From an uncultured Marvinbryantia sp. (GTDB taxonomy: Bacteria > Bacillota > Clostridia > Lachnospirales > Lachnospiraceae), in the NCBI GenBank assembly GCA_934394985.1, contig CAKRRF010000005.1, positions 25,297 to 89,296 on the forward strand: DNA of 64,000 nucleotides, in the 5' to 3' direction. The position numbers and the translations under genes are program-made. Positions 3,989-46,300 of this stretch are shown here, piece after piece. The notes beneath the pieces were generated by a model. It did not search any database and was not told the origin of the DNA. It saw only the letters and a list, made by a program, of their open reading frames with translations. Positions within the stretch are counted from its first letter, which is position 1. Every line of letters begins with the position of its first letter.

Positions 3989-4025
3989 ACAGCGGGGATT
4001 TTTCATAAGAGAAGGGATTATAAAC

Positions 4026-11591: not shown

Positions 11592-11607
11592 GCTTCTCAC
11601 CTCACTT

Positions 11608-11653: not shown

Positions 11654-11861
11654 TCTCGAAGAGACGAACACACATTAAGTAGAAAGAAAATTCATTCTGC
11701 GTTATTAGTCTAGTTAAATTTTGTACGCTGTATTAGTTTTGAAAAGAGTGCAGGAAATTGTGCAATATGGAGAAAGTTTCCCGATACTGGAGAAGAGTTG
11801 GCGCGAGAAGGACTTGATAATTAAAAAATTGCTTCAATGATTGAATAGAGAAATAGAAGAT

Positions 11862-27774: not shown

Positions 27775-27844
27775 ATTCTGACTAAAAAGAAGTAAAAGGA
27801 AAAGCGGTCAATACGATAGAGAAAAAGAAGAAGGGAATTTGTGT

Positions 27845-28954
27845 ATGAAAGCAGAAAAAGTAAAAAGATGGATGAGTATTGGCAGCTTTTGTCTGTTGCT
27901 CGGAGGCTGTGCAGGTGTACATGCAGGAGCAGAGGAGACAGAACCGATTCTGTATGAAACAGAGTATGAGGATGGGAAAAATATACCAGAGCTGGAATCA
28001 TCAGAAAATGTGGATCCGGAAACAGAACTGAAATCAGAAACAGAAACAGAATCTGAAGCAAAGTCGGAATTCGAATCGGAAGCAGAGGAAACAGAAAGGA
28101 CAGAGATACTGCAGCTGGAATATAAAGTGGAAGATCAGAATCTGGAAATCGGCAAATGTTTTGCAGATATCGTAGTGCCGAACTATGCAATGACAGAAAA
28201 AGGAGACAAAGTAACCGGTCAGGTGGAATGGAGAGTACCGGGAGATTCCCGTGTTTTTGATAAAGAGATAGCACTTGGCGGAGTGGAAGGTGAAAAGAAA
28301 ATCTGGGAATGGACGTTTGTTCCAGATGATACCGTGTACGAAAGTCTCAGCGGAACAGTGGAGATTACCATGCAAAAAGACAGGGAGGAGGAGTCAGGAA
28401 GCCTGGCAGATCTGGTAAATTTATGGAAAGATCATGGTGCAGATAAAACGTCACATACAGCCAGTGCATCCGGAAGCAGTATAGGTGCTTCGAACACGAT
28501 AAAGGTATCAGATCTTCAGGATATTGGAAAATGGATGGGATCACTTCTGACCGGTGCCGAAATTCTGGGAGATAAGAAAGACGGAAGTGTGAAAGAAATC
28601 GGAAAAGGAACTTTTACAGTAGTGCATGGAACCGTAAAAAGAGAAGAATCGAAAAATCAGGCGGAAACAGAAAGCAGTGTACCGGAATCAGAGAAAGAAA
28701 TGATGCCTGCCACATCAGAGGCAGGAGACGCCGATACGGAAACAGCAGAGCCATTTTTAAGTGCTTTTATCTCTGGTGCCGAACAGACGAAGCATACAGA
28801 GAGGATCTATGTATACAGGGAAAGAGAGAAGAAGGAGGCGTTGCTGCCGGCAGAGATGTCTGTGGATCATCATATGAACTGCAGAAAGGCGTTAAAATAT
28901 GGAAAATTTGGCATGGCGGTATTTGCACATTGCCGAAGCAGGTATTGGAAATAG
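27845..28954 (+). CDS. Acidic surface lipoprotein, unknown function
   Basis: 369 residues. Signal peptide with lipobox LLGGC (Cys22), then a Glu/Thr/Ser-rich stretch (about residues 30-88), an Ig-like domain ending in the pattern WTFVPDDTVYESLSGTVEI that resembles repeats of clostridial surface proteins, and a second acidic stretch. The C-terminal 30 residues (NCRKALKYGKFGMAVFAHCRSRYWK) are basic and Cys-containing and unlike the rest, as if a frameshift had replaced the native end. ATG 27845 with AAGGGA 9 bases upstream. Function unknown. Confidence 0.75.
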   Translation: MKAEKVKRWMSIGSFCLLLGGCAGVHAGAEETEPILYETEYEDGKNIPELESSENVDPETELKSETETESEAKSEFESEAEETERTEILQLEYKVEDQNLEIGKCFADIVVPNYAMTEKGDKVTGQVEWRVPGDSRVFDKEIALGGVEGEKKIWEWTFVPDDTVYESLSGTVEITMQKDREEESGSLADLVNLWKDHGADKTSHTASASGSSIGASNTIKVSDLQDIGKWMGSLLTGAEILGDKKDGSVKEIGKGTFTVVHGTVKREESKNQAETESSVPESEKEMMPATSEAGDADTETAEPFLSAFISGAEQTKHTERIYVYREREKKEALLPAEMSVDHHMNCRKALKYGKFGMAVFAHCRSRYWK

Positions 28955-30003: not shown

Positions 30004-30765
30004 TCAAACTTTTGAACCTGGCATCTTATAATATTGCAGCACATGTTCAACATATTCGGGATCACCGTAGCTGCTCCAGCCCAATGTGTTTTGCATCATC
30101 AGGGAAAATTCTGTGGCATTTTCCACGGTGTAGATACCATAATTATCCAGAACCCAGGATGCATAACTATTGCCAAAATTGTAATCCTGCAGAGCAATTT
30201 TCAGACGCTCTGTATTTTTTATGCTTTTACAACCGGCCTCCTTCAGACAGAAAGCAAAATATTCGGCACCGACCTGAATCGAGTAGGCAGGATCTGTGAT
30301 GGCATTAGGATAGTTTTCATATACTGTATTAAACGGGCACTCCGAGCATTGCAGCACATCGGTACCCAGACCGGAGCTTTCCTGCTGCATCATGGCCAGC
30401 ATGACAGTAGAAAACTGGGAGATTCCGGCATCTTTACAAGCCTGCTCCACAGCCGATTCGTATTGCAGGACTTCATTGCTGACTCCAGTCAGCGAACCTT
30501 TATTTACAGGGAAAAGAAGGCGATGTATCAGCAGTCCTCCCAGAAGCAAAACCAAGGCAGTAACAGTTAACATCAGGATCTTCAGGCGTCTGATTTCCTG
30601 TGCGCGGGAACTCTTTTTTCGTTTAGATCTGGATGAAACAGATGCCTTTTTATCGGTGTTCTTTCTGGAGGAGCTGTTGTCAGATGAAGCTTTTGTGATG
30701 GAACTGGTTTTCTTTCGGGGTGGTCTGGCAGAGTCTGCTGCCGTCTTTTTTTTCTGCTCTGTCAT
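30004..30765 (-). CDS. Lysozyme-like membrane-anchored cell-wall hydrolase
   Basis: 253 residues: a Lys/Ser-rich cytoplasmic N-terminus, one membrane helix (LMLTVTALVLLLGGLLIHRLLF), and an extracytoplasmic lysozyme-like domain resembling the muramidase part of CwlT (PF13702 type), with the catalytic Glu in MMQQESSGLG, GAEYFAFCLKEAG and LQDYNFGNSYASW. ATG 30765 follows AAAGGA; the frame extends to 30810 without a ribosome site. It lies 22 bases after the small Cys-rich gene and is probably co-transcribed with it. Confidence 0.85.
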   Translation of the reverse strand: MTEQKKKTAADSARPPRKKTSSITKASSDNSSSRKNTDKKASVSSRSKRKKSSRAQEIRRLKILMLTVTALVLLLGGLLIHRLLFPVNKGSLTGVSNEVLQYESAVEQACKDAGISQFSTVMLAMMQQESSGLGTDVLQCSECPFNTVYENYPNAITDPAYSIQVGAEYFAFCLKEAGCKSIKNTERLKIALQDYNFGNSYASWVLDNYGIYTVENATEFSLMMQNTLGWSSYGDPEYVEHVLQYYKMPGSKV

Positions 30766-30787
30766 ATTTTTTCCTTTTACTTTAGTA

Positions 30788-30961
30788 CTAATCCCGGTAG
30801 TTTTCCGCACATTTACTGCAGGCAGAATTACGGCTGCAGGTAAAATCAGTCATAATATCTTCCGGATAACGGCTGCAGCTTCCTTTGGTATAAGTTACGG
30901 TGTGTTTTACCCTGGAAGCATCGGTTGGGCAACGGTAATCATAATCTTTTGTATATTCCAT
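30788..30961 (-). CDS. Small Cys-rich protein, unknown function
   Basis: 57 residues, MEYTKDYDYRCPTDASRV... with five cysteines, including a C-terminal CSRNSACSKC cluster, which suggests metal binding. AAAGG 8 bases before the ATG at 30961; the frame opens at 30997. Same strand as and just before the lysozyme-like gene. I do not recognise the family. Confidence 0.65.
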   Translation of the reverse strand: MEYTKDYDYRCPTDASRVKHTVTYTKGSCSRYPEDIMTDFTCSRNSACSKCAENYRD

Positions 30962-31230: not shown

Positions 31231-32997
31231 ATGAAAAAACTGTTAGATCTGATTGCTCAGGAACTGATCCCGGCATTTGAGAAAGCCGGATACGATGCCT
31301 CCCTTGCACGGGTGACCCTGTCCAACCGACCGGACTTATGCGAATACCAGTGCAATGGCGCTATGGCGGCAGCCAAACAATATAAAAAAGCACCGATCAT
31401 GATTGCCAATGATGTAGTGGCAAATCTTTCAGACAGCACCATGTTTGAAGAAGTCACAGCGGTTAATCCAGGATTTATTAATATGAAGCTGTCAGGTGCA
31501 TTTCTGTCAGATTATCTGCAGAAGATGCAGGCAGATGAGGACTTATCCGTAGAAAAAGCAAAAGAGCCAAAGACGATCGTGATTGATTACGGCGGAGCGA
31601 ATGTTGCAAAGCCTCTTCATGTAGGACATTTACGTTCTGCGATTATTGGTGAAAGCTTAAAGAGAATGGGACGTTTCATGGGGCATAATGTGATAGGAGA
31701 TGTACATCTGGGAGACTGGGGTCTGCAGATGGGGCTGATCATTACGGAATTACAGAAGCGACAGCCGGATCTGGTATATTTCCAGGATGATTATACAGGG
31801 GAATACCCAAAAGAAGCACCATTTACCATCAGTGATCTGGAAGAGATTTATCCGACAGCAAGCAAGAAGTCCAAAGAAGATGAAAGCTATAAAGAAGAAG
31901 CGCTGGAAGCAACCCGCCAGCTTCAGATTGGAAAGCCGGGTTATCGTGCTCTGTGGGATCATATCATGAAGGTTTCGGTAACTGACTTAAAGAAAAACTA
32001 CGGCAGACTGGATGTTTCTTTTGATCTGTGGAAAGGTGAGTCAGATGCGCAGCCATATATTCCGGACATGGTACAGAAGATGAAGGAAGAAGGCTTTGCA
32101 CATGAGGATCAGGGTGCCTATGTAGTAGATGTGAAAGAAGAGACAGACACCAAAGAGATTCCGCCATGTATTATTGTAAAATCAGATGGCGCATCCCTGT
32201 ATGCGACGACGGATCTGGCAACGATTGTAGAACGTATGAAGCTGTATCAGCCGGATCAGATTCAGTATGTGACAGATAAACGTCAGGAAATGCATTTTAT
32301 TCAGGTGTTCCGTTGTGCAAAGAAGACTGGACTGGTAAGTGACGATACAAAGTTATCCTGGCTGGGATTTGGTACCATGAACGGAAAAGACGGAAAGCCG
32401 TTTAAGACCCGTGACGGTGGAGTGATGCGACTGGAAAATCTGATCAGTGAGATCAATGAAGAAATGTATCATAAAATCATGGACAACCATGAAATTGATC
32501 CAGAAGAAGCAAAGGAGACAGCAAGAATTGTCGGTCTGGCTGCGATTAAATATGGCGATCTTTCCAATCAGGCTTCCAAGGATTATGTATTTGATATCGA
32601 CCGTTTTACTTCATTTGAAGGAAATACCGGACCATATATTCTGTATACCATTGTACGTATCAAATCCATCTTGAACAAATATCAGGCAGCCGGAAATGAC
32701 GTGCAGGCAGGAGAGATCGGAGTAGCAGCCAATGCCAGTGAGAAAGCCCTGATGCTGGAACTGAGTAAATTCAACAGCGTGATGGAAAGTGCTTTTGAGG
32801 AAATGGCGCCACATAAGATTTGCTCTTATATCTACGATCTGTCCAATGCGTTTAACAGATTCTATCATGAGACCAAGATTTTATCTGAAGAAAATGCGCA
32901 GCAGAAAGCATCCTGGATCAAATTGCTGGTACTGACCCGTGATGTGCTGGAAAACTGCATCGGAGTACTTGGATTTGATGCACCGGAAAGAATGTAA
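31231..32997 (+). CDS. argS: Arginyl-tRNA synthetase
   Basis: 588-residue class I synthetase that charges tRNA-Arg. HIGH motif variant KPLHVGHLRSAIIG, an N-terminal Add1-like domain, the KMSKS region as GKDGKPFKTRDGG, and the C-terminal helical DALR domain (KICSYIYDLSNAFNRFYHETKI). Length is normal for the family. ATG 31231 after GCGAGGAAG. Single-gene transcript with its own promoter and terminator. Confidence 0.97.
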   Translation: MKKLLDLIAQELIPAFEKAGYDASLARVTLSNRPDLCEYQCNGAMAAAKQYKKAPIMIANDVVANLSDSTMFEEVTAVNPGFINMKLSGAFLSDYLQKMQADEDLSVEKAKEPKTIVIDYGGANVAKPLHVGHLRSAIIGESLKRMGRFMGHNVIGDVHLGDWGLQMGLIITELQKRQPDLVYFQDDYTGEYPKEAPFTISDLEEIYPTASKKSKEDESYKEEALEATRQLQIGKPGYRALWDHIMKVSVTDLKKNYGRLDVSFDLWKGESDAQPYIPDMVQKMKEEGFAHEDQGAYVVDVKEETDTKEIPPCIIVKSDGASLYATTDLATIVERMKLYQPDQIQYVTDKRQEMHFIQVFRCAKKTGLVSDDTKLSWLGFGTMNGKDGKPFKTRDGGVMRLENLISEINEEMYHKIMDNHEIDPEEAKETARIVGLAAIKYGDLSNQASKDYVFDIDRFTSFEGNTGPYILYTIVRIKSILNKYQAAGNDVQAGEIGVAANASEKALMLELSKFNSVMESAFEEMAPHKICSYIYDLSNAFNRFYHETKILSEENAQQKASWIKLLVLTRDVLENCIGVLGFDAPERM

Positions 32998-33035
32998 AAG
33001 AAAATATCTTCTGTTTGAGGAAACAGAAATGAGAT

Positions 33036-33067
33036 ATCCCCGTGTCATAAGACGCGGGGATGTTTTG
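33036..33067 (+). terminator. argS terminator
   Basis: ATCCCCGTGTC (33036-33046) pairs with GACGCGGGGAT (33051-33061) around ATAA, followed by GTTTTGC. Confidence 0.85.
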
Positions 33068-33139
33068 CATTCAAAGCCCCTGGGTAGTCCAGATTACCTA
33101 TGACACATTTATATAATAAGTGGAAAGAATAAAAATTGT

Positions 33140-33181
33140 GCAACATTAACAATAGACAAATGTTGCGTTTTGTACTACAAT
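33140..33181 (+). promoter_or_regulatory. Promoter of the envelope operon with inverted repeat
   Basis: TAGACA (33153-33158), 17-bp spacer, TACAAT (33176-33181). The inverted repeat GCAACATT (33140-33147) / AATGTTGC (33159-33166) straddles the -35 element, a likely regulator site. The 110-base leader carries a 15-mer at 33265-33279 that recurs at 61235-61249. The stretch 33068-33139 shows nothing I can name. Confidence 0.65.
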
Positions 33182-33304
33182 AAATTCAATTCAAATCTGT
33201 GAATCATATCATGGCGTTCGCCAATTGATTCCATCTATGAAGAAGTAGTATCGTTCGCATTCTGCTGAACAGATACGAAGACAATCATATAATTGGAAGG
33301 GGGA

Positions 33305-34858
33305 ATGGATCTGGAACCGGGAACCTGGATTGACGACAGATATAAGATTCTGCGTCTGCTGGGAAAAGGACAGGAAGGCAGTGTATATCTGGCCTTTCAG
33401 GAGACTTTGTTTCGCTTTTATGCAATAAAAGAACTGAAAAAAGAAGGATTCTGTTTTTCAAGGGAAAGTGTGGAGGTATGGAAGACTCTGCATTGTCCGG
33501 GACTTCCGGAAGTTGCGGATATTCTGGAGACGGAGGATGCGGTGATGATTGTATCGGAATACATTGAGGGTATCACACTGCAGCAATATCTGGAAAAAAA
33601 CGAAAGAGTCACGTTAAAGATGGCTGTATGCTGGTGTCTGCAGATTGGAGAGGTGCTGGAGTATCTGCATAGTCAGAACCCGCCGATTGCTTATGGAGAT
33701 CTGAAGCCGGATAATCTGATGCTGCAGAAAGACCGGATTGTGCTGGTTGATATGGGCTCGTTGATACGTCAGGGAAGTAACGGAAAATATACCGGGACGA
33801 AAGAATATACAGATCAGAATGCACAGCTGTATCAGGAAGATCCAGAGAGACGGGATGGATACAGCTATGGGAAACTGATGGCTCTTCTGGGGGAACTCTG
33901 TGGAAACAGAAAGTTAAAAAAACTGGCATTCAGAATGATGGGAAAAGAAAAAAGAGTGATTTCCCTGAAGCGGACTAGAAGGAAACTGAGAAAGCTGGGG
34001 ATACAGGGAGAACTATATTTGGGAATGCTGCTTCTTACCGGAAGTCTGCTGGCAGGACTTGGTATGAAAGAAGCCAGTGCCCTGCAATGGAATACAGAAA
34101 ATATGGAATTTGAAATCGAAATGGCAGAAGCAGAGAAACAGAAAGGAGAAGAGCGAGAAAAAGTATTTTGTCAGCTAATAAAAAAATATCCGGAAAGAAA
34201 AGAAGGATATCTGAAGCTTCTGGAGAACTTTCAGGAAGATCTGGTTATGGAGGAGCAGGAAGATCAAACATATCGGAGTCTCTGGAAGGAGTTTTCGGAG
34301 AAACAGGAAAAAAGTTATCGTGAAATTTTGATGCAGGATCCGGCCGGGTGGCAGGAAGTGGCCTATGAATCCGGAATAACGTACTGGTATTTTTACAAAG
34401 GACCGGAAGGAAAACGTTATGCAGCCAGCTGGTTTTCTGAGGTGACCAGGATGCCCAAAGTACTTACCGCAGATACAGAACTGTGGGATAAGAGCCATTT
34501 ATATGAAAAATTGGGAGAATACCGGGATAAATGGAAAAAATATGATGAAACAGGGGAAGGTAAACATCTTTTTTCTTCTTACTGGAATGACTGTGAACAG
34601 CTGCTTAAGCTGGAAGAGGGACAGATGACCATGGCAAGGCTGATGCTTTGGACGGAGATGCTGTCGTCCTGGCAGCATTATATGGTAGAGCTGAAGGAAG
34701 CAGGCATTCAAAGAGAAGAGATGGAAGAGAAACTGTTTCAAATGACAGAGGAGCAAAAAACAATTCCGGAAGGTCATCACCGTATGCAGGAGCTGGGAGA
34801 AAAACTGCTGCAGGATCGCAAAGAAATTCAGAACATGATAGAGCGTGTATATAAATAA
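33305..34858 (+). CDS. Membrane Ser/Thr protein kinase-like protein
   Basis: 517 residues. Cytoplasmic kinase domain at 1-200: Gly loop GKGQEGSV (20-27), Lys42 in YAIKELK, catalytic YGDLKPDN with Asp132 (HRD His/Arg replaced), Asn137, and Asp149 in VDMG (DFG variant), so the core catalytic residues remain. A membrane helix at about 236-254 leads to an extracytoplasmic, strongly helical Glu/Lys-rich region of about 260 residues. It lacks PASTA repeats. The kinase-helix-helical layout recalls EssB/YukC of type VII secretion, though those are pseudokinases; the link is only by architecture. Start at ATG 33305 near GGAAGGGGG; first gene of the operon. Confidence 0.8.
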   Translation: MDLEPGTWIDDRYKILRLLGKGQEGSVYLAFQETLFRFYAIKELKKEGFCFSRESVEVWKTLHCPGLPEVADILETEDAVMIVSEYIEGITLQQYLEKNERVTLKMAVCWCLQIGEVLEYLHSQNPPIAYGDLKPDNLMLQKDRIVLVDMGSLIRQGSNGKYTGTKEYTDQNAQLYQEDPERRDGYSYGKLMALLGELCGNRKLKKLAFRMMGKEKRVISLKRTRRKLRKLGIQGELYLGMLLLTGSLLAGLGMKEASALQWNTENMEFEIEMAEAEKQKGEEREKVFCQLIKKYPERKEGYLKLLENFQEDLVMEEQEDQTYRSLWKEFSEKQEKSYREILMQDPAGWQEVAYESGITYWYFYKGPEGKRYAASWFSEVTRMPKVLTADTELWDKSHLYEKLGEYRDKWKKYDETGEGKHLFSSYWNDCEQLLKLEEGQMTMARLMLWTEMLSSWQHYMVELKEAGIQREEMEEKLFQMTEEQKTIPEGHHRMQELGEKLLQDRKEIQNMIERVYK

Positions 34859-34898
34859 ATGCAGAGAGAAAGGTGTTAGAAAACGGGAGGAAATTGAC

Positions 34899-37559
34899 AT
34901 GAGGAAAGCAGAAGCAGCTGCAGTATTGTGCATGTGTGGCATGCTTATCACTGCAGCAAATCAGGTTGGCGCAACACAGACAGACTGGAGGAATCAGACA
35001 TGGAGCGAATTGGAATGGATGACAGAGAACGGATCAGAAGAAGGGAACGGGAAGGAGAATCAGGACGTCACAGATTCAGGAGACGGAGGGGAAGAAGAAT
35101 GGGAAGACGAAAGTGATTGTTTTTATGAAACAGAAGAAGACACAGACGGGGAAACAGAAAGGATAACGGAAACGGAGAGTGAGGAAGAGACCTGTCAGAT
35201 TATCCTGTCTGCGGTCAGAGTGACAGAGCCAGAGCGTTATTATGACGGAACAGACCGGGTGGCAGTAGAAGCACAGGTTACCGGACTTCCGGAGGGAATG
35301 AAGCTTGAACTGGAAGGCAGGGCTCAGCATGCAGATGCCGGTGACTGGGGCGTAGAAGTAATCTGTGATCTGGAAGGAGAGGCATGCGAAAAATATGAAA
35401 TCATACAGGCGTATGATCCGGCACAGCTGCAGGTTCGAATTTTGCCAAAGCCGCTTACGCTGACGATCAGTAATGCCAGAAAAAGCTATTATACCGATGT
35501 TACGATGGAGAATCTGATCTTTGAAAAGGACAACATATGGGAGGTGAGCGGATTTCTGGAACAGGATGTTCCGAATGGAGAAGTGCCGGAAGGATTTCAG
35601 TATCCGGAACTGGAACTGGATGAGACAGTGCTGCAAAAAGAAAGTCCGATGTATGAAGGCGGAAAGTTGATACATTATCGTCATGCATTTACCGTAAAAA
35701 AGAATCTGGATGGAAGTATAACCGGGAATCCGACGGCTAATTATATATTTTATCAGGAAGAAACAGATTATATAAAAGGCGGAGAGGTGGTGCTTTCAGC
35801 AGCTCCGATAGCAGGAACGTTGGACTATACCATACAGTGTACAGATCCGTCTGCTATGTGGATGGATCCGAATGGTACTTTGTGGGTACGGGATGGCAGC
35901 GGACTGCAGATTGTGCCGGAAAAAAACAGGGGATTTACAGATGGAGAGCTGATTTCTGATATACAGGGAGACGGAACGGCAGAATTTGTTCTGACAAGAA
36001 AAAATAAAAAAGGAGAGATTGTCGCCGAATCGCAGATTCGCAGTATTTCCTGGAGAGCAGACAGGGAAGCACCACAGGCAGGATGGACCATTGACGGAAA
36101 GCAAGAACCGGATACAGAGCCGGTGTATCTGAATCGGGATTCGCAGATGGCTGTTTCCGGTGTAACAGAATATGGGAGTGGTCTGAAGAATGTGGAATTA
36201 TATGCTGCCTTTGGGGAAGAGAAGACGATGAGCGGAGAAGCACTTTATCAAAGCAGCAAGAGTTGGAAAAAGGGTATGCAGCTTTTGCTGAATCAGGAAG
36301 GAAGCTGTCGTGTCTGGATCCGGCTGGAAGATATGGTTGGAAATATACGATATCAATGCAGTAAAGAGATCGTGATCGATCGGACAGCACCCAAACTGCG
36401 TATTGAAAATATAGCAGCCGGAAGTGCGAATAACGGGGAAGTGACGCCTGTCTGTATCATGGAAGATGATAATTTAAAAAAAGACAGTCTCAGGCTGACA
36501 TTGACCGGATGCCAAACCGGGGAACGACATGTGATGTGGAAAGAGAATGACTGTGAAAGTACAGAAAAACTTGTACTGCAAATGGAAAATCTTCCGAAAA
36601 AACGGGAATGGGATGATGTATATACGTTAAAAGCGGAAGTGTCAGATATGGCAGGAAACCATAGCAGCAGAGAAATACGATTTTCTGTAAATCGTTTTGG
36701 ATCCGTATATTATCTGGGAGATGAGACCAGAAAACAGACAGAGCAATTTTATGTTTCACATCCTATTGCACCTAAAATTTATGAAGTAAATGTAGATTAC
36801 CTGACAGAATCCGGGATTCTGCTGGGGCATGAAGGAAAAACAAGACAATTAAAACGAGATGTAGATTATACCGTACAGAAAAATGGTGATGATGGAACAT
36901 GGAAAGAATACTGTTATACCATAAATGCAGATTGTTTTCAGGAAGAAGGAGGATATTATCTGGTCTGTGCCAGTGAAGACCGGGCATGGAACAGTCAGGA
37001 TAATCGGATGGGAAAACAGAAAATTGAGTTTGCGATAGATAAAAGCGCTCCCTTTATTTTACTTACCGGAATAGAAGAGAACGGAATCTATAAAGAGGCT
37101 GAGAGAAAAGTAATACTGGAGTGCAGGGATAATCTGGCTTTGCAGGAAGTAACCGTATGGCTGAACGGAGAAGAGATGCTAAAAAATATGGAAGAAGAAC
37201 AGGAGATGACACTGAAGCAGAAACAGGACTGGCAGACAATCAGGATCGTGGCAACAGATAAAGCGGGAAATCAGAAGGATACCGGAGAAATCAATTTCTG
37301 GATTGGAGAACAGGATAAGATACCGAAACGAAAAAGGGAAGAAAAGAAGACAGAGCAGATCGAACCGCAGGAGTGTGAGGCAGAAGAAAATGAAATGTAT
37401 CAGAAGGAAAAAACAGGAGGAAAAAGCATGACTGGTTTACGTGAAAAAAGAAAAACGGCGACAGAAAAGAATACAGGGAAAAACTGGATAATTATGCCGG
37501 GGATTGTTGTATTTACAGCATTATTGGCGATTTTCTTCTTCAGAAAACGGGAGAATTGA
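34899..37559 (+). CDS. Membrane-anchored Ig-like surface protein
   Basis: 886 residues. Signal peptide (about 1-25, QVGA-TQ), an acidic low-complexity stretch (about 42-98), several beta-rich Ig-like modules (RILPKPLTLTISNARKSYY; IVIDRTAPKLRIENI; FAIDKSAPFILLTGIEENG; ATDKAGNQKDTGEINFWI), a basic linker, a C-terminal membrane helix (WIIMPGIVVFTALLAIFFF) and the short tail RKREN. No LPXTG. Probably an adhesin or wall-spanning scaffold. Start at ATG 34899 with GGGAGG 8 bases upstream; an earlier in-frame start overlaps the kinase gene. Gap to the kinase stop is 40 bases. Confidence 0.8.
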   Translation: MRKAEAAAVLCMCGMLITAANQVGATQTDWRNQTWSELEWMTENGSEEGNGKENQDVTDSGDGGEEEWEDESDCFYETEEDTDGETERITETESEEETCQIILSAVRVTEPERYYDGTDRVAVEAQVTGLPEGMKLELEGRAQHADAGDWGVEVICDLEGEACEKYEIIQAYDPAQLQVRILPKPLTLTISNARKSYYTDVTMENLIFEKDNIWEVSGFLEQDVPNGEVPEGFQYPELELDETVLQKESPMYEGGKLIHYRHAFTVKKNLDGSITGNPTANYIFYQEETDYIKGGEVVLSAAPIAGTLDYTIQCTDPSAMWMDPNGTLWVRDGSGLQIVPEKNRGFTDGELISDIQGDGTAEFVLTRKNKKGEIVAESQIRSISWRADREAPQAGWTIDGKQEPDTEPVYLNRDSQMAVSGVTEYGSGLKNVELYAAFGEEKTMSGEALYQSSKSWKKGMQLLLNQEGSCRVWIRLEDMVGNIRYQCSKEIVIDRTAPKLRIENIAAGSANNGEVTPVCIMEDDNLKKDSLRLTLTGCQTGERHVMWKENDCESTEKLVLQMENLPKKREWDDVYTLKAEVSDMAGNHSSREIRFSVNRFGSVYYLGDETRKQTEQFYVSHPIAPKIYEVNVDYLTESGILLGHEGKTRQLKRDVDYTVQKNGDDGTWKEYCYTINADCFQEEGGYYLVCASEDRAWNSQDNRMGKQKIEFAIDKSAPFILLTGIEENGIYKEAERKVILECRDNLALQEVTVWLNGEEMLKNMEEEQEMTLKQKQDWQTIRIVATDKAGNQKDTGEINFWIGEQDKIPKRKREEKKTEQIEPQECEAEENEMYQKEKTGGKSMTGLREKRKTATEKNTGKNWIIMPGIVVFTALLAIFFFRKREN

Positions 37560-37610
37560 TGGACAATTGAAACAGTATGTGTTATGATCCTTACCAAGAG
37601 GTGAGGAAAA

Positions 37611-38570
37611 ATGTCTAATAAGAGGAAATTTACTACCATCCTGGCAGTAGCAGGTGCGACAGTACTTGCGGCAGGAGGAAGCGCATTTGTGACAAATGCC
37701 GGATTATCAGTGATTGATCCAGATGCATCCAAGACCCAGGAATCAGAAGTGGCAACAAATGAAAAAGAAACCGAATTGCCCCTGACGGTAGAACAATTTG
37801 CGGCAACAAAAGATTCATTTACAATAAAGCCGCTGTCAGATGCTGATAAGAAAAAGAAAGTAGATTCTGACAAAAATCAGGAAAGTGAACAGAACACAGA
37901 TGGAACAGATGCAGAGGACAACGCACAGAATGGATCCACTACAGAAGGCGGATCTTCGACAGGAAGCGGTGCATCTACAGATTTTTCATCCAGTCAGTAT
38001 TATAGTTCTGACGGAAAGTTCTATAATGAAAGTGAAGGCGGATATTATGATGATAACGGTCTGTATCATGATCAGTGGGGCGGTTATTATTCTGCTGATG
38101 GAGCTTATTATGATGGACAGGGCGGTTACTGGGATGGTAACGGATATCACAGTACCGGATCAGGAAGCAGTTCATCGGGCAGCAGTTCCACAGGAAGCAG
38201 CTCATCGGGCAGCGGATCATCAGGAAGTTCTTCCGGTATTACAATAGATAACGGAGGTGGAAGCTCTTCAGGGGGAAGCTCATCAGGAAGCAATTCCGGA
38301 GCATATGATGACAGTTATATGATGTATGACGTGGATTCCCGTTATATTTCCGCAGATGAACTCAGCAGCTGGTCTTCGGAGGATCTGGCGAAGCTGAGAA
38401 ATGAGATCTTTGCCCGTCACGGAAGGATCTTCAAGACACAGAAATGGATAGATTATTTCTCAACAAAGACATGGTATGTACCACGATATGAGAATGTGGA
38501 TTCTATGTTAAATGACTATGAATGGGCAAACCTGGATGTCATTTTGAAACTGGAAGACCAGAGAAATTAG
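37611..38570 (+). CDS. Secreted/anchored YARHG-domain protein
   Basis: 319 residues. N-terminal signal or anchor helix (FTTILAVAGATVLAAGGSAF), a Glu/Lys/Gln-rich linker, Tyr/Gly repeats of the type GGYYxxxGxYxD (about residues 140-180), a Ser/Gly-rich spacer, and a C-terminal YARHG domain (LAKLRNEIFARHGRIFKTQKW ... KTWYVPRYE). YARHG domains are extracellular, of unknown function, and common next to cell-wall proteins. GAGG precedes the ATG. Same operon, 51 bases after the Ig-like gene. Confidence 0.85.
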   Translation: MSNKRKFTTILAVAGATVLAAGGSAFVTNAGLSVIDPDASKTQESEVATNEKETELPLTVEQFAATKDSFTIKPLSDADKKKKVDSDKNQESEQNTDGTDAEDNAQNGSTTEGGSSTGSGASTDFSSSQYYSSDGKFYNESEGGYYDDNGLYHDQWGGYYSADGAYYDGQGGYWDGNGYHSTGSGSSSSGSSSTGSSSSGSGSSGSSSGITIDNGGGSSSGGSSSGSNSGAYDDSYMMYDVDSRYISADELSSWSSEDLAKLRNEIFARHGRIFKTQKWIDYFSTKTWYVPRYENVDSMLNDYEWANLDVILKLEDQRN

Positions 38571-38583
38571 GAGGGTACATAGT

Positions 38584-39684
38584 ATGGCAGAGAAAGAAAA
38601 TCAACAGTATAAATGGAGACAGAGAAAAAAGAGAAATACTCTGCTGGCAGCCTGGATCATTGCAGTGATCATTGTGGCAGCCGCAGTGACCTTTGTTGTT
38701 GTCGGTATGAAAAACGGCAATCCACTGAACGTGGCAAAACGTTATGTGGAGAATGTGATAGGAGTTTCGGATTATCAGGTTGAGACAGGGGCTCGTTCTC
38801 TGAACAATGAGAATCAGTTTGTACAGGAATATAAGTTTACTTATACCGCAGATGGAAGAGAAGTAACAAAAACCATCAATATGCTGCAGCAGAATAAGAA
38901 ACGCTTTGGCCTGTTTGACCAGTGGGGAATTGACGGAGAGGCGGCCGGAAAGACGATGGATCTGGAACTGATTGCACCGGCGGGTTCTCAGGTACTGGTA
39001 AACGGCGTGGCACCAGATGCATCTTCTGTAAAAGAGGATGAGAATCTGTCACCGGGAGCTGTCTGCTATGCACTGACCGGCGTAAAGGCACAGGACAGTA
39101 AAGTACAGGTAAACGGACTTCCATTTGATTCCTATGAAACAACGATTGATTCCTCTTCCGCAGTTCTGGATGTGCGTGACCAGTTGGTAGTAGGAGAAAA
39201 TGCACAGACTCAGATGACAGAACTGGCAAAGAGCATGATCAATGAGCTGTTTACAGCAGCAGTACAGGAAAAGGGTGCAGATTCCTTAAGCAGTCTGTTT
39301 GCTCAGGCGGCGAATAAAGATAATCTGTATAAAGCGATTCATGACAACCTGTTCCAGGACAAGACACTGAAGGTGAAGAGTATTACATTCAGTGATTTTA
39401 AGCCAACATTTGGTGAAGTATATTACCCGGGAAAAGGGGAAGAAAGCTATATCGGTATGGAGATGACGATTTCCTATACCTGTGCTTATGAGCCTGCTGA
39501 CAGTCAGGATACAGAGAGTGAATCAGAAACAGAGACTGAGACAGAAAGTCAGGAGTCCGAGACCAATACATCAGAGACAGAAAAGAACTCTGCTCATTCA
39601 GCAACAAAGGAAGCAAAGTTCTACTTTAAGTATGTAAATGGAAACTGCACGGTTACAACAATTGAAGTACCGAATGCAATTTAG
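38584..39684 (+). CDS. Membrane-anchored extracellular protein, unknown function
   Basis: 366 residues: basic N-terminus, one membrane helix (about 19-41), an extracellular alpha/beta region (NPLNVAKRYVENVIGVSDYQVE ... FKPTFGEVYYPGKGEESY) and a Ser/Thr/Glu-rich insert before the last strands (EAKFYFKYVNGNCTVTTIEV). Position and layout resemble TcaA-like or NTF2-like cell-surface proteins but I cannot assign a family. GGAGGG precedes the ATG. Gaps of 13 and 18 bases tie it to its neighbours. Confidence 0.75.
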   Translation: MAEKENQQYKWRQRKKRNTLLAAWIIAVIIVAAAVTFVVVGMKNGNPLNVAKRYVENVIGVSDYQVETGARSLNNENQFVQEYKFTYTADGREVTKTINMLQQNKKRFGLFDQWGIDGEAAGKTMDLELIAPAGSQVLVNGVAPDASSVKEDENLSPGAVCYALTGVKAQDSKVQVNGLPFDSYETTIDSSSAVLDVRDQLVVGENAQTQMTELAKSMINELFTAAVQEKGADSLSSLFAQAANKDNLYKAIHDNLFQDKTLKVKSITFSDFKPTFGEVYYPGKGEESYIGMEMTISYTCAYEPADSQDTESESETETETESQESETNTSETEKNSAHSATKEAKFYFKYVNGNCTVTTIEVPNAI

Positions 39685-39702
39685 ACAGGAGTCTGAAAAA
39701 GA

Positions 39703-40659
39703 ATGAAAAAAAAGAGATTCGCAGCGTTTTTTATGGCACTTGCAGTGGGAGTTTCCAGTGCAGTGCCGGCCAGTGCAATGCTGTCAGAGGATGAGCAGAA
39801 AGCGGCATATATTGAAAAGGCAGTGAAAGAAGCACTGAGTACACAGACAGAGGAAAGTGAGTCAGAAGTCACAACGGAAGCAGTGACAGAAACCGAGACA
39901 GAAACTCAGAAAGAAACTGACAGCGAAACTGAGACAGAAGCTGCAACTGAAAAAGAAAGCGAGTCAGAGACTGAGACAGAATCTGAAAGCGAAACGGAAA
40001 AGGCAGCCAGCCAGGAGGAAAAAATTATCATTGCCATTGATGCATCCCATCAGGCGAAGGGGGCAGATCTGGAAGAGAAGGAACCGATTGGACCGGATGC
40101 AGAAGAAACAGCAAAAGGATTCAGTACAGGGATCAGTGGAACCGTATCCGGGCTGACTGAGGCAGAATTGAATCTTTCTGTTGCAAAAGAACTGAAGAAA
40201 CAGCTGGAAAACCGTGGTTACGAAGTATATATGACCAGAGACAGTGAAGAATCTGATCTGAGCGAAGCCGAAAGAGCAAAAGAGGTCAATGCCTCCGGTG
40301 CACAGATTCTGATCAGTCTTCATGCCAATGGCGGTGAAGACAGCACAGAGAACGGAGTATCCGTAATGGCTCCTTCTTATGATAATCCATATTGGAAAAA
40401 CGAAAATATTAAAAAAGGCAATGCACTGGCAGATATTATTCTGCAGTCCTATTGTGAAGAAACCGGGTTAGATAAAAAAGGTCTTTACAATGTGGACAAT
40501 CAAATTTTGCTGAACTGGAGTGAAGTCCCGGCCATGATACTGGAAATGGGATTTATGTCGAATGATTCAGATGACACTTATATGGCAAAAGAAGAAAATC
40601 AGCAGAAGATGGCAGAGGGGATTGCAGATGGCGTGGATCTCTATTTTGGGAGATCCTGA
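39703..40659 (+). CDS. N-acetylmuramoyl-L-alanine amidase (Amidase_3)
   Basis: 318-residue secreted peptidoglycan amidase. Signal peptide ending ASA (about 25), a Glu/Thr/Ser-rich linker (about 49-105), and a catalytic domain with zinc-site residues His116 (DASHQ), Glu155 (TEAELN) and His207 (SLHANG), the strand motif YEVYMTRD, and the catalytic Glu in MILEMGFMSN. DASHQ replaces the usual DxGHGG. It cleaves the bond between MurNAc and the stem peptide. The gene follows by 18 bases in the envelope operon. Confidence 0.93.
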   Translation: MKKKRFAAFFMALAVGVSSAVPASAMLSEDEQKAAYIEKAVKEALSTQTEESESEVTTEAVTETETETQKETDSETETEAATEKESESETETESESETEKAASQEEKIIIAIDASHQAKGADLEEKEPIGPDAEETAKGFSTGISGTVSGLTEAELNLSVAKELKKQLENRGYEVYMTRDSEESDLSEAERAKEVNASGAQILISLHANGGEDSTENGVSVMAPSYDNPYWKNENIKKGNALADIILQSYCEETGLDKKGLYNVDNQILLNWSEVPAMILEMGFMSNDSDDTYMAKEENQQKMAEGIADGVDLYFGRS

Positions 40660-40661
40660 TA

Positions 40662-41306
40662 ATGGAACAAATGATACCAACAGGCGTCAGAATACTGAGT
40701 CCTGTAGTGATTCACTTCTGCGCCATCAATATGATACAAATGATGAGGCTGCATGCAGATGCAGCCTTTTGTACAACTATAGCAGCAATACTGGTATTGC
40801 CGGTATATCTGTGGATGATGAAAAAAGATGGTTATGAACAGCGTCGAAGCAGCAGTTTTTCTGTATCAGCCGGTATTGCCGTGGTTGTACTGGCTGTGTC
40901 GACGAATATCATCCTGACCGGAGTAATCAATCTGTTGATAAGCTTTCTGGAACGGTGGAATCGAGAAGAGATGCTGGTCAGTTCAGCACAGAATGCCCTG
41001 TTTCAGAGTAACTTCCTGATTTTGCTGATCGGAGTGGGAATCATAACACCAATTATGGAAGAAGTATTGTTCAGAGGTCTTGTCTATAATCGGTTAAAGG
41101 ATTATAATAAAGGGTGGTTGTCGATCATTCTGGCAGCCGGGATGTTTGCAGTGTATCATGGAAATATCCGGCAGGCTCTGGCGGCATTCCCGATGGCTGT
41201 GATAATGATATGGTTATATGACAGATGGGATTCTATTCTGGCACCGATTCTGTTTCATATGACGGTCAATCTCAGTTCGATTCTGCTTATGGCAGTGCAG
41301 GGATGA
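40662..41306 (+). CDS. CPBP family intramembrane glutamic protease
   Basis: 214-residue polytopic protein of the Abi/CAAX (CPBP) family. Motifs: IMEEVLFRGLVYNRL (EExxxR), AVYHGN and PILFHMTVNLSS. Such proteases act on membrane proteins or in bacteriocin self-immunity; here the context is envelope genes. ATG 40662 is 3 bases after the amidase stop, so translation is coupled. Confidence 0.88.
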   Translation: MEQMIPTGVRILSPVVIHFCAINMIQMMRLHADAAFCTTIAAILVLPVYLWMMKKDGYEQRRSSSFSVSAGIAVVVLAVSTNIILTGVINLLISFLERWNREEMLVSSAQNALFQSNFLILLIGVGIITPIMEEVLFRGLVYNRLKDYNKGWLSIILAAGMFAVYHGNIRQALAAFPMAVIMIWLYDRWDSILAPILFHMTVNLSSILLMAVQG

Positions 41307-41338
41307 AGACAATCAGAAATGAAAAAAAGGAGAAACAG

Positions 41339-41857
41339 ATGAAAAAAGAAATATTGAGCTGGATCGGATGCTTTGTAGTTGCGATACTGGCAGCGTTGTT
41401 TATTGTCACTTTTGTGGGACAGAGGGTACAGGTAGACGGACATTCCATGGAAGATACCCTTCAGGACAGAGATAATCTGATCTGTGATAAGTTATCTTAT
41501 CGTTTTTCAGATCCGGAAAGGTTCGATATTGTAGTGATTTATCCGGATAATCAGAAAGATAAGCGCTGGATCAAACGTATTATCGGAATGCCAGGTGAGA
41601 CAGTCCGTATCGATGAAGAAGGAAATATCTACATCAATGGAGAAGTTCTGGATGAACATTATGGAAAAGAAGTCATTCAGGATCCGGGACTGGCGATTTC
41701 AGAGATTACACTGGGAGAAGACGAATACTGGTGTATGGGAGATAACCGGAATCACAGCAGCGACAGCCGTGTAATAGGACCGGTACCGAGAAATCATATT
41801 CTCGGAAAGGCATTTATTCGAATTTACCCATTCAGTAAATTTGGATTGATTCATTAA
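41339..41857 (+). CDS. lepB: Signal peptidase I
   Basis: 172-residue type I signal peptidase of the short Gram-positive (SipS-like) form: one N-terminal membrane helix, catalytic Ser36 in DGHSMEDTL, Lys79 in KRWIKRIIGMPGE, and the GDNRNHSSDSR box. ATG 41339 follows AAAGGAG; the longer frame opens inside the CPBP gene. As last gene of the envelope operon it may process the secreted proteins encoded upstream. Confidence 0.95.
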   Translation: MKKEILSWIGCFVVAILAALFIVTFVGQRVQVDGHSMEDTLQDRDNLICDKLSYRFSDPERFDIVVIYPDNQKDKRWIKRIIGMPGETVRIDEEGNIYINGEVLDEHYGKEVIQDPGLAISEITLGEDEYWCMGDNRNHSSDSRVIGPVPRNHILGKAFIRIYPFSKFGLIH

Positions 41858-41918
41858 AAATATGATACAGAGTACAGAATCTGTATAATATAAAAACAGC
41901 AATGGAGATAGGAACAAA

Positions 41919-43295
41919 ATGGAAAGAAAAAGTGTATGGAACAGTTACGGAAAAAAGGAACTGGCAGAACTGGAAAAACTGAATAAAAATTACCGTCATT
42001 TTCTGGATAACGGAAAGACAGAAAGAGAATGCGTAAAAGCAGCAGTAAAGCAGGCGAAGAAGGAAGGCTTCAAAGATCTGCAAGAAGTGATCCGTTCAGG
42101 AGAAAAGCTTCAGGCCGGAGATCGTGTATATGATGTCTTTATGGAAAAAGCACTTGCACTGTTTATCATTGGAAGCAAGGACATTGAAAAAGGAATGAAT
42201 ATTCTGGGAGCGCACATCGATTCTCCACGACTGGATCTGAAACAGAATCCACTGTATGAAGATACAGAACTGGCATATCTGGATACCCATTATTATGGTG
42301 GCATTAAAAAATACCAGTGGGTAACGATTCCGCTGGCTCTTCATGGTGTAGTTGCGAAAAAAGACGGCAGTGTAGTAGAAATCAATATCGGGGAAGAAGA
42401 GGATGACCCGGTATTCTGTATTTCTGACCTGCTGATTCACCTTTCCTCAGAGCAGATGGAAAAGAATGCAGCCAAAGTAGTAGAGGGGGAAGCTCTGAAT
42501 CTGCTGATTGGCAATATCCCTCTGAAAGAGGAAGAAAAAGATGCAGTTAAGAAAAATGCATTAAAGCTGTTAAAAGAAAAATATGATATAGAAGAAGAAG
42601 ATTTCCTTTCAGCCGAGCTGGAAGTAGTTCCTGCAGGAAAGGCAAGAGAATGTGGACTGGACCGCAGCATGATTCTGGCATACGGACAGGATGACCGTGT
42701 GTGCGCGTATACTTCTCTGGAAGCGATTCTGGATACCAAGAAGGTAAAACGCACTGCCTGCTGTATTCTGGTAGACAAAGAGGAAATCGGAAGCGTAGGT
42801 GCTACCGGTATGCAGTCCAGATTCTTTGAGAATACAATGGCAGAACTTCTGAACTGTATGGGTGTTTATTCCGAACTTACCTTAAGAAGAGTACTGGCAA
42901 ATTCAAAGATGTTGTCATCTGATGTAAGTGCAGCTTTTGACCCGGAATATGCATCGGTATTTGAAAAGAAAAATGCGGCATATTTTGCAAGAGGAATTGT
43001 CTTTAATAAATATACAGGTTCAAGAGGAAAGTCCGGTTCCAATGATGCCAATGCGGAGTACGTGGCAGAACTGAGAAAGATTATGGACAAGCATGGTGTA
43101 GCTTTCCAGACAGCAGAACTGGGCAAAGTAGATATCGGAGGAGGCGGAACAATCGCCTATATCCTTGCTTTATACGGAATGCAGGTAATTGACTGTGGAG
43201 TGGCAGTTATGAGCATGCATGCACCATGGGAAATTGTCAGCAAAGCAGATGTTTATGAAGCGAAGAAGTGTTATATGGCATTTCTGGCAGAATAG
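41919..43295 (+). CDS. M18 family aminopeptidase
   Basis: 458-residue cytosolic dizinc aminopeptidase (aspartyl aminopeptidase family). Metal motifs: LGAHIDSPRLDLKQNP, then LVDKEEIGSVGATGM, and the C-terminal CGVAVMSMHAPWEIVSKAD. It removes N-terminal residues from peptides. The start follows a 61-base gap with a GGAG-like site (ATGGAGATAGG), so it may lie outside the envelope operon. Confidence 0.93.
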   Translation: MERKSVWNSYGKKELAELEKLNKNYRHFLDNGKTERECVKAAVKQAKKEGFKDLQEVIRSGEKLQAGDRVYDVFMEKALALFIIGSKDIEKGMNILGAHIDSPRLDLKQNPLYEDTELAYLDTHYYGGIKKYQWVTIPLALHGVVAKKDGSVVEINIGEEEDDPVFCISDLLIHLSSEQMEKNAAKVVEGEALNLLIGNIPLKEEEKDAVKKNALKLLKEKYDIEEEDFLSAELEVVPAGKARECGLDRSMILAYGQDDRVCAYTSLEAILDTKKVKRTACCILVDKEEIGSVGATGMQSRFFENTMAELLNCMGVYSELTLRRVLANSKMLSSDVSAAFDPEYASVFEKKNAAYFARGIVFNKYTGSRGKSGSNDANAEYVAELRKIMDKHGVAFQTAELGKVDIGGGGTIAYILALYGMQVIDCGVAVMSMHAPWEIVSKADVYEAKKCYMAFLAE

Positions 43296-43398
43296 TCAGT
43301 AAAAGAACGTAATTGTCCGAAAGCTGTGTGAAAATCTGGGAATACAGGCTTTTGGGATATTTACAAATATACAACATGGAAAAAACATGGAGGAGCTT

Positions 43399-46300
43399 AT
43401 GAGTAACGTAAGAAGAGTTTATGTGGAGAAAAAACCGGCATATGCAGTGCAGGCCAAAGAATTAAAACATGAAATCCGAAGTTATCTGGGAATTGACAAC
43501 ATGACGGGAGTACGTGTACTGATTCGTTATGATGTGGAGAATATTTCTGATGAAGTATTTGAGGCAGCATGCAAGACGGTATTTTCAGAACCGCCGGTAG
43601 ACCAGTTATATCGCGAAAGTTTTGAAATGGGATCGGAGGACAGAACGTTTTCTGTAGAATATCTTCCGGGACAGTTTGACCAGAGAGCAGATTCTGCGGT
43701 GCAGTGTGTCAGATTCCTGAATGAAGACGAAGATCCGGTGATTCGTTCTGCAACAACCTATGTGATTGAAGGCAAGATCACAGAGGATGAATTTGCAGCA
43801 ATTAAAAGCTACTGTATCAACCCGGTAGATTCCAGAGAGACAGATATGAAAAAACCGGATACTCTTGTTACGGTATTCGATGAACCAAAAGACGTTATTA
43901 TTTTTGACGGATTTACAGAGATGTCAGAGGAGGCATTAAAAGAACTGTATGATTCTCTGAACCTGGCAATGACATTCAAAGATTTTCAGCATATCCAGCA
44001 TTACTTTGCCGGTGAAGAAAAGAGAAATCCGAGTATGACAGAAATCCGGGTACTGGATACGTACTGGTCTGATCATTGTCGTCATACTACTTTCTCCACA
44101 GAATTAAAGAATGTAGAATTTGGAGAAGGTGATTACAAAAAACCGATCACAGGTACTTATGAAAAGTATCTGGCAGACCGTGCTGAGATTTTTAAAGGAA
44201 GAGATGATAAGTTTGTCTGCCTGATGGATCTGGCACTGATGGCGATGAGAAAGCTGAAAAGAGAAGGTATGTTAGACGATCAGGAAGAATCTGATGAGAT
44301 CAATGCCTGCAGTATCGTGGTTCCGGTGGAGATTGACGGAGAAGTAGAAGAATGGCTGGTGAATTTTAAGAATGAAACGCACAACCATCCGACAGAGATT
44401 GAACCGTTCGGTGGTGCTGCTACCTGTCTTGGTGGAGCAATCCGTGATCCGCTGTCAGGAAGAACCTATGTATATCAGGCCATGCGTGTTACAGGAGCCG
44501 CAGATCCTACCGTATCTGTAAAGGATACTTTAAAAGGAAAACTGCCTCAGAAGAAGCTGGTACGTCAGGCTGCACATGGATATTCATCTTATGGAAACCA
44601 GATCGGACTGGCAACCGGATATGTAAAAGAAATTTATCATCCGAATTATGTGGCAAAGAGAATGGAGATCGGTGCTGTCATGGGCGCTGCACCGAGAAAA
44701 GATGTAAAGAGACTTACCTCCGATCCTGGTGATATTATCATTCTGCTTGGCGGTCGTACCGGACGTGATGGTATCGGCGGTGCAACAGGATCTTCGAAAG
44801 TGCACACAGAAAGTTCGATCGAAGTCTGTGGCGCAGAAGTGCAGAAGGGTAATGCACCTACAGAAAGAAAAATTCAGCGTATGTTCCGCAGACCGGAAGT
44901 CAGCCGTCTGATTAAGAAATGTAATGACTTTGGTGCCGGTGGAGTATCAGTGGCGATTGGAGAACTGGCAGACGGACTTCAGATTTATCTGGACAAGGTG
45001 CCGAAAAAATATGCAGGTCTGGATGGAACAGAAATTGCCATCTCTGAATCACAGGAACGTATGGCTGTTGTAGTAGATCCGGCAGATGTGGAAGAATTCC
45101 TGAAATATGCCAATGAAGAAAACCTGGAAGCAGTAGAAGTGGCAGTGGTTACCGAGACACCGAGACTGGTATTGATCTGGAGAGACAAAGAGATTGTAAA
45201 TATCAGCAGAGCATTCCTGGATACCAATGGTGCACATCAGGAGACGGATGTATATGTTGAGATTCCATCCGGAAGTGATAATTATTTTACAAGAGAATCA
45301 GTGAAAGACGTAAAAGAAAAATGGATGGAAGACCTGGCAGATTTGAATGGCTGTTCTCAGAAAGGGCTGGTTGAGATGTTCGACAGTTCCATCGGTGCAG
45401 GCAGTGTTCTGATGCCATATGGTGGAAAATATCAGCTGACAGAGACACAGGCCATGGTGGCTAAGCTTCCGGTTCTGAAAGGCAAGACAGATACAGTGAC
45501 GATGATGGCATATGGATTTGATCCATACCTGTCAAGCTGGAGTCCGTATCACGGAGCTGTATATGCAGTACTGGAGTCTGTGGCAAAGATTGTTGCAGGC
45601 GGTGGAGATTATAAGAAGATACGTCTGACTTTCCAGGAATATTTCCGCAGAATGAGTGAAGATCCGAAGAGATGGAGTCAGCCATTTGCAGCATTACTTG
45701 GTTCTTATGAAGCTCAGCTGGGATTTGGACTTCCGTCTATCGGAGGAAAAGATTCTATGTCCGGTACCTTTAATGAGATTGATGTACCGCCGACACTGGT
45801 ATCTTTTGCAGTAGATGTGGCAAGTGATAAGACCATGCTTTCACCGGAACTGAAGAAAGCCGGTAACAAACTGGTTCTGTTCCAGATTGAAAAAGATGAA
45901 TATGATCTTCCGGTATACGAGCAGGTAAAAGAACTGTATGGCAGATTCTTTGAAGATGTGAAGGCAGGAAAGATTGTTTCTGCGTACACTCTGGATGGAA
46001 AGGGCGTTGCACTGGCAGTATCTAAGATGGCTTTCGGTAACGGACTGGGAGTCAAGATCGCAGATGACTTTGAGAAAGACAGCCTGTTTGCACCTGGATT
46101 TGGTAATCTGATTGCAGAAGTTCCGGCAGAAGAAGCAGGAAAACTGACTGCAAACGGCGTGGTAATCGGTGAGGTGACAGAAACACCGGCTCTGACATAT
46201 AAAGATATGACGATTACTCTGGATGAAGCACTGCAGGCATGGAAAGGTACACTGGAAAAAGTATTTAAGACTGTGTCCGGTGAACAGGGGGGAACGGCAT

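What the first reader, a model, noticed from the sequence alone, without database searches (positions are those of the whole stretch)
33140..41857. Seven-gene envelope operon led by a membrane kinase-like protein
A kinase with an extracytoplasmic helical domain, an 886-residue Ig-like anchored protein, a YARHG protein, another anchored exoprotein, an amidase, a CPBP protease and a signal peptidase I, with gaps of 2-51 bases. Kinase signalling, wall cutting, proteolysis and export are combined in one transcript. I know no described system with this set; the EssB-like layout of the kinase raises a possible secretion or surface-assembly role.
Basis: partly seen in the sequence, partly recalled or inferred. 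Interest (0 to 1): 0.7.

Follow-up and report, generated by a model that had tools for sequence, protein, structure and literature searches.

The report
Stand-alone kinase–Ig pair resembling type VII secretion
A chromosome, probably of a gut clostridium, carries a membrane kinase and a partner Ig-like surface protein that are relatives of two parts of a recently described protein-export machine, but here they sit without the rest of that machine nearby, beside cell-wall-cutting and protein-processing genes, which hints that the pair may sense the cell envelope.

Summary
The seven genes are real, co-oriented and closely spaced. The kinase's outer domain matches on its own (hhalign 97.3%; 5 of 5 shuffles and 9 of 12 other kinase tails at most 0.8%, 3 of 12 also matching), as does the membrane-proximal Ig part (99.6%). 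In the window, tblastn finds only these two of 14 A. rectalis locus proteins. The clade has Gly for the HRD Arg in 23 of 23 sequences. Kinase and Ig hit lists share 7 contig lengths (0.02 expected); each shares 3 with the fourth gene. Whether the YARHG, NTF2-like, amidase, CPBP and signal-peptidase genes belong to the same system is not shown. I propose a transenvelope sensor related to T7SS parts but working without the secretion ATPase: a new variant of a known kind. No genome was held, so a T7SS elsewhere in the chromosome is not excluded.

The parts
33140..33181 (+). 8-bp inverted repeat (33140-33147 / 33159-33166) overlapping a promoter-like site (33153-33181)
   Evidence: not statistically special (44 such repeats in the window)
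33305..34858 (+). Membrane Ser/Thr kinase, TseD-like (517 aa): cytosolic kinase domain ~1-235, long helix 221-278 with TM ~236-254, extracytoplasmic helical domain ~267-517
34899..37559 (+). Ig-like protein, TseI-like (886 aa): N-terminal signal-like segment, Ig-like modules, C-terminal TM 863-881 with short basic tail; part 591-803 most conserved
   Evidence: the signal sequence is by eye, the hydropathy scan marks only the C-terminal TM
37560..37588 (+). promoter-like site (TGGACA-17-TATGAT, TG-extended) between the Ig gene and the YARHG gene
   Evidence: consensus match only
37611..38570 (+). secreted or anchored protein with C-terminal YARHG domain (319 aa)
   Evidence: PF13308, 1.5e-20; hydrophobic segment 9-27
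38584..39684 (+). N-terminally anchored exoprotein (366 aa), no Pfam family above cut-off; predicted beta domains and a C-terminal NTF2-like domain 205-364
39703..40659 (+). secreted N-acetylmuramoyl-L-alanine amidase (Amidase_3, 318 aa), signal-like segment, E/S/T-rich linker
   Evidence: 8.2e-38; motifs at 113, 154, 205, 279
40662..41306 (+). CPBP/Rce1-like intramembrane protease (214 aa), EExxxR, FxxxH and HxxxN present
41339..41857 (+). signal peptidase I (172 aa), SM, KRIxG and GDN motifs present

Best explanation
The first two genes form a stand-alone relative of the kinase-Ig pair (components D and I) of T7SSe-type secretion loci. Inferred mechanism: the Ig protein, held by its C-terminal TM, spans or probes the wall; its conserved membrane-proximal part meets the kinase's helical extracytoplasmic domain; a change there passes down the long transmembrane helix to the cytosolic kinase, which phosphorylates cytosolic or membrane targets not identified here. 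The next five genes, perhaps also from their own promoter, supply wall-binding (YARHG), wall-cutting (amidase), anchored-scaffold (NTF2-like) and protein-processing (CPBP, signal peptidase) functions that such a sensor could serve. Shown by computation: homology of both proteins to a T7SSe-type locus, shared contigs in relatives, retained catalytic residues, predicted topology. Inferred: the contact between the two, kinase activity, the signal, the targets, independence from a secretion ATPase, and any tie to the five downstream genes. The odds given here and for the rivals overlap, as the readings are not all exclusive.
For: Kinase family profile to the A. rectalis kinase: prob 100, 476 columns. 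Outer part alone: 97.3% over 211 columns, against 0.1% for 5 of 5 shuffles and at most 0.8% for 9 of 12 other kinase tails; 3 further tails at most 0.4%. Ig family to the A. rectalis Ig protein: 99.6% over 384 columns (BLASTP 8e-21). That record holds EssC, YukD, WXG100, PP2C and DUF6382+FHA genes, as T7SSe is described in PMC11217815 (section 9). Kinase and Ig hit lists share 7 contig lengths, 0.02 expected. Only the kinase and Ig protein of 14 A. rectalis locus proteins have a tblastn match in the window at E 0.01. Catalytic Lys, Asp, Asn and DFG Asp kept where covered. Model with mean pLDDT 87.4, pTM 0.56, and one helix 221-278.
Against: Only one T7SSe-type locus could be read; of 641 plasmid records hit by its kinase, it alone matches over 80% of the length. 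The window clade does not group with that kinase in the tree, so descent from a secretion system is not shown. 3 of 12 tails from the wider hit list, of unknown context, match the outer domain too, so the domain is not proof of a T7SS tie. HRD Arg is lost, the APE motif is no longer recognisable in the window protein, and a C-lobe stretch is missing, so kinase activity may be reduced. No genome was held, so EssC could lie elsewhere. tblastn can miss short, divergent WXG100 or YukD proteins, and Pfam was run on only 37 window proteins (and NCBIfam in 14).
Confidence: 0.55

Rival explanations
1. Split type VII system: the kinase and Ig protein work with an EssC ATPase and WXG100 substrates encoded elsewhere in the same chromosome, so the pair is an ordinary T7SS part at a separate locus.
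For: Both proteins are homologues of T7SSe-type D and I. On the A. rectalis plasmid EssC lies about 24 kb from the kinase, with other genes of the cluster between, so such loci can be long.
Against: No tblastn match for EssC, YukD, WXG100, PP2C or FHA proteins in the 64 kb. The clade has its own mark (Gly for HRD Arg in 23 of 23), absent from the one T7SSe-type kinase read.
Confidence: 0.25
2. Two or more unrelated units in tandem: the kinase-Ig pair, then a separately expressed envelope set (YARHG, NTF2-like, amidase) and common genes (CPBP, signal peptidase), with no shared task.
For: Promoter-like site in the 51-base gap at 37560-37588. The fourth protein is 78-86% identical in relatives whose linked kinase or Ig protein is 50-54% identical. 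It has 67 hits, some named Marvinbryantia; the kinase list bears almost no names and was capped, so absence of the kinase there is not shown.
Against: Kinase or Ig hits share a contig length with fourth-gene hits in four cases (15544, 19178, 62320, 25290). YARHG domains occur fused to kinase domains in six proteins in PMC3355149 (passages).
Confidence: 0.4
3. The kinase no longer signals; it is a structural scaffold like EssB, whose pseudokinase domain docks a partner.
For: HRD Arg to Gly in 23 of 23 and no recognisable APE in the window protein (P0020 keeps PE, P0010 and P0012 AP); shorter C-lobe than the A. rectalis kinase; a long membrane-spanning helix, as in the YukC stalk of PMC9600267 (passages).
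Against: VAIK Lys, catalytic Asp, Asn and DFG Asp are kept where covered; Pkinase score 83.3 bits against a cut-off of 31.7.
Confidence: 0.25

Closest known systems
T7SSe components D and I, PMC11217815 (T7SSd and T7SSj are said there to have D and I too; not compared here)
   Same: Membrane kinase with helical extracytoplasmic C-terminus and a large exported, C-terminally anchored Ig-like protein; homology tested against one A. rectalis plasmid locus of T7SSe make-up
   Different: No tblastn match for ATPase, WXG100, YukD, PP2C or FHA proteins in the window; Ig protein half the length (886 against 1727 aa); Gly for HRD Arg
EssB/YukC of T7SSb
   Same: Layout: cytosolic kinase fold, one TM in a long helix, helical outer domain
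   Different: YukC is a pseudokinase that did not bind ATP (PMC9600267, passages); no Pfam YukC match here
PASTA kinases (PknB/Stk1/StkP)
   Same: Cytosolic Ser/Thr kinase, one TM, extracytoplasmic domain
   Different: No PASTA match in Pfam; helical outer domain; neighbouring Ig gene
YARHG-kinase fusions, PMC3355149
   Same: Kinase domain linked with an extracellular YARHG domain proposed to bind peptidoglycan
   Different: Here separate genes with the Ig gene between them

Membership tests
T7SSe | Kinase TseD with helical extracytoplasmic domain | tested here: met
   (against one T7SSe-type kinase)
T7SSe | Large Sec-exported Ig-like protein TseI with C-terminal TM | tested here: met
   signal sequence by eye
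T7SSe | EssC-type ATPase TseC in the locus | tested here: not met
   tblastn of A. rectalis EssC on the 64 kb, no match at E 0.01; rest of the genome not testable
T7SSe | WXG100 proteins (TseA, TseA2) and YukD-like TseB in the locus | tested here: inconclusive
   no tblastn match in the window, but short divergent proteins can be missed
T7SSe | PP2C phosphatase TseF and DUF6382-FHA protein TseJ in the locus | tested here: not met
   no tblastn match in the window at E 0.01
T7SSe | Small membrane proteins TseH and TseK | not tested
   not identified in the record read
EssB/YukC | YukC family profile PF10140 | tested here: not met
   no match at E 0.1 for the kinase; the profile rings in B. subtilis as control
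EssB/YukC | EssB fold of the outer domain | tested here: inconclusive
   Foldseek and VIA rows shown are filled by kinase domains; outer domain not folded alone; phmmer of it against PDB has best E 0.22
EssB/YukC | Degenerate kinase active site | tested here: not met
   Lys, Asp, Asn and DFG Asp present in the window protein, though HRD Arg and a recognisable APE are lost
PASTA kinase | Extracellular PASTA repeats | tested here: not met
   Pfam lists two kinase families only at E 0.1; NCBIfam PknB_PASTA_kin 67.1 bits against a cut-off of 450

The most novel reading that the evidence does not exclude
A secretion-independent transenvelope signalling pair built from the same parts as T7SSe components D and I, with a modified kinase (Gly for the HRD Arg, no clear APE), wired to wall cutting and surface-protein processing in gut Clostridia; it would imply that D and I are a separable sensing module of type VII systems.
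Probability: 0.3. Interest if true: 0.7.

Novelty: new variant of a known kind. Interest (0 to 1): 0.5.

Why it matters
In the parts of PMC11217815 that I read, T7SSd/e/j are defined by gene neighbourhood and predicted structure, and the tasks of their kinase and Ig protein are proposed, not tested. A lineage that keeps relatives of those two together with no ATPase, WXG100 or phosphatase gene found nearby would make it testable whether they form an envelope-sensing unit of their own, apart from secretion. It also gives a lead for proteins that annotation names only as a kinase and an Ig-like repeat protein, as on the A. rectalis plasmid.

Tried and rejected
Whole-genome route: no genome is held for the window (for the file). 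YARHG was sought in that genome (G001): 0 of 1, and no control genome rang, so it says nothing.

Viral-contig scans with the kinase, fourth-gene and Ig alignments: two loci (L003, L004), kinases with an LRR-looking C-terminus (by eye) whose tails do not match; no relative for the other two. Plasmids with the YARHG protein: one match, over 22% of the query, in a Clostridioides plasmid, not fetched. Plasmids with the A. rectalis kinase: 641 records, only its own record covered at 80% or more. Paenibacillus plasmid kinase (L008): next to SAF-domain and T2SS/T4P ATPase genes, its tail unrelated.

EssB as relative: no YukC profile match. YukC/EssB is not among the rows shown by the fold searches (50 rows each) nor among the 60 PDB sequences shown for the kinase profile (2569 matched); kinase domains fill these lists, so this says nothing about the outer domain. 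A Bacillus and a Subdoligranulum plasmid were searched for YukC to get a sequence for direct comparison: 0 of 2.

Other searches without yield: fourth protein against PDB sequences, one match at E 0.31, and against viral models, none at E 0.001; Ig family against PDB sequences, none at E 0.01; PHROGs, only a generic kinase family and endolysin families for the amidase. Defence system: PADLOC hits of the kinase (31 families, 25 shown: mad6, PD-T4-6 and others) lie within residues 1-201, the generic kinase domain; none for five other proteins. TcaA-like identity of the fourth protein: recalled resemblance only, not tested. Regulator of the inverted repeat at 33140: not pursued.

Literature: no paper found on a stand-alone pair. 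Searches: (terms: type VII secretion/Lachnospiraceae/kinase/EssB; YARHG; T7SSe; type VII secretion/Lachnospiraceae/WXG100; DUF6382; type VII secretion/Ig-like/serine-threonine kinase/Clostridia/gut). PMC11217815: passages and section 9 seen; PMC3355149 and PMC9600267: passages only. The main text of PMC11217815 names neither Agathobacter nor Lachnospiraceae.

Full report
Observation. The seven genes are there, co-oriented, between an argS-like gene (31231-32997) and an aminopeptidase-like gene (41919-43295); these two neighbour names are recognised by eye, not from a search. Preferred starts give gaps of 40, 51, 13, 18, 2 and 32 bases. The stated start, 33140, is an inverted repeat overlapping a promoter-like site, not a gene start. 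Rfam finds no RNA family from 32900 to 43600 at gathering scores. The organism is not told; relatives of the fourth protein are named Marvinbryantia or Eubacteriales, so a Lachnospiraceae-like clostridium is likely.

The relative that matters. tblastn of plasmids gave 6 records, the best-covered identity being in a 251-kb A. rectalis plasmid, 41% over the kinase domain. There the kinase lies next to a PP2C gene, a 1727-residue Ig-like repeat protein, a DUF6382+FHA protein and WXG100 proteins, with EssC and YukD about 23-24 kb away across the record start. Pfam: FHA 6.5e-16; DUF6382 8.2e-06, at 26.0 bits just under its cut-off of 26.7; WXG100 1.5e-19; FtsK_SpoIIIE 2.4e-51; YukD 6.7e-07. No YukC profile match in that record, with B. 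subtilis ringing as control. This is the make-up of T7SSe in PMC11217815: TseA, A2, B, C, D (kinase), F (PPM phosphatase), H, I (large Ig-like protein with signal peptide and C-terminal TM), J (DUF6382+FHA), K (section 9). The authors compare TscD with EssB in topology only (passage), note that the C-terminal parts of D proteins differ between subtypes, and suggest that TsdI may span the envelope. Assigning the plasmid locus to T7SSe is mine, by content; the paper's main text does not name Agathobacter.

Homology of both partners. The kinase family profile matches the A. rectalis kinase over 476 columns at 100%. To exclude that this is the kinase domain alone, I compared the outer parts: 97.3% over 211 columns, against 0.1% for 5 of 5 shuffles. 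Of 12 other kinase tails from the hit list, 9 gave at most 0.8% and 3 (P0026, P0029, P0030) matched at 96.8-98.6%. I take these three as members of the same wider family; their gene contexts are unknown, so the outer domain by itself does not prove a T7SS tie. Tails of three further kinases gave at most 0.4%. The Ig family profile matches the A. rectalis Ig protein at 99.6% over 384 columns ending at its residue 1590 of 1727; in the family, residues 591-803 are also the best-kept part (63-77% in the 16 nearest relatives, 26-32% in the 5 distant ones).

Linkage in relatives. The protein database gives no neighbourhoods, but lists each cluster's longest contig. Exact length coincidences between lists are a proxy for lying on one contig. 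Kinase (25 of 77 rows used) and Ig (22 of 34) share 7 lengths, expected 0.02 (highest of 2000 simulations 1); kinase and fourth gene (67 of 67) share 3, expected 0.09 (highest 2); Ig and fourth gene share 3, expected 0.07 (highest 2). One shared contig is 4987 bases, hardly longer than both genes. Two lengths (15544 and 19178) occur in all three lists. There the kinase and Ig proteins are 50-54% identical to the window's and the fourth protein 82-86%: kinase and Ig diverge to a like degree, the fourth gene much less. Proximity and order on the longer contigs are not known.

What is missing. tblastn of 14 A. rectalis locus proteins on the whole window finds only the kinase and Ig homologues (E 1.7e-30 and 3.7e-19; cut-off 0.01). 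WXG100 and YukD could be missed; I judge that EssC would probably be seen, but ran no control for that. No genome was available, so the rest of the chromosome is open.

Tree. In a quick tree of 27 kinases, eight short ones left out, the window clade is one group (SH-aLRT 99) apart from the A. rectalis kinase, which groups with P0026 (99); five forks are open. So this is a separate lineage with its own mark; direction of descent is not resolved.

Mechanism and judgement. I favour a transenvelope sensor: Ig rod in the wall, membrane-proximal contact with the kinase's outer domain, signal down the helix, phosphorylation inside, with wall-cutting and processing genes as possible but unproven clients. 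Shown: homology, contig sharing, residues, predicted topology. Inferred: contact, activity, signal, targets, independence from secretion, role of the last five genes. The rivals are a split T7SS, unrelated tandem units and a scaffold pseudokinase; the first needs one complete genome to settle.

Noticed in passing
3990-5501: A sodium:solute symporter gene is interrupted: the listed ORF (4434-5501) aligns only from profile position 102 on, and the upstream part lies in the same frame before an in-frame stop. Possible pseudogene or sequencing error.
   Followed up: partly
10156-11675: AbiEi/AbiEii-type toxin-antitoxin pair on the - strand.
   Followed up: no
27839-28954: Secreted-looking protein without a Pfam match, with E/S/T-rich stretches (seen) somewhat like those of the fourth protein and the amidase of this finding; the strict pattern rang only in the latter two.
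   Followed up: no
30004-30810: Lysozyme-like protein (- strand, PF13702) with a hydrophobic N-terminal segment, just upstream of the argS-like gene: another wall-cutting enzyme near the finding.
   Followed up: no
61298-62155: Glucosaminidase with choline-binding-type repeats, a further wall hydrolase in the window.
   Followed up: no
L008:8911-16437: Paenibacillus plasmid: a kinase domain 42.5% identical to that of the A. rectalis kinase stands before SAF-domain and T2SS/T4P ATPase genes, so such kinases also sit beside pilus-like loci.
   Followed up: partly
L003:1425-3320 and L004:661-2556: Kinase followed by a hydrophobic segment and an LRR-looking C-terminus (by eye) in two IMG/VR contigs that are nearly identical there.
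   Followed up: no
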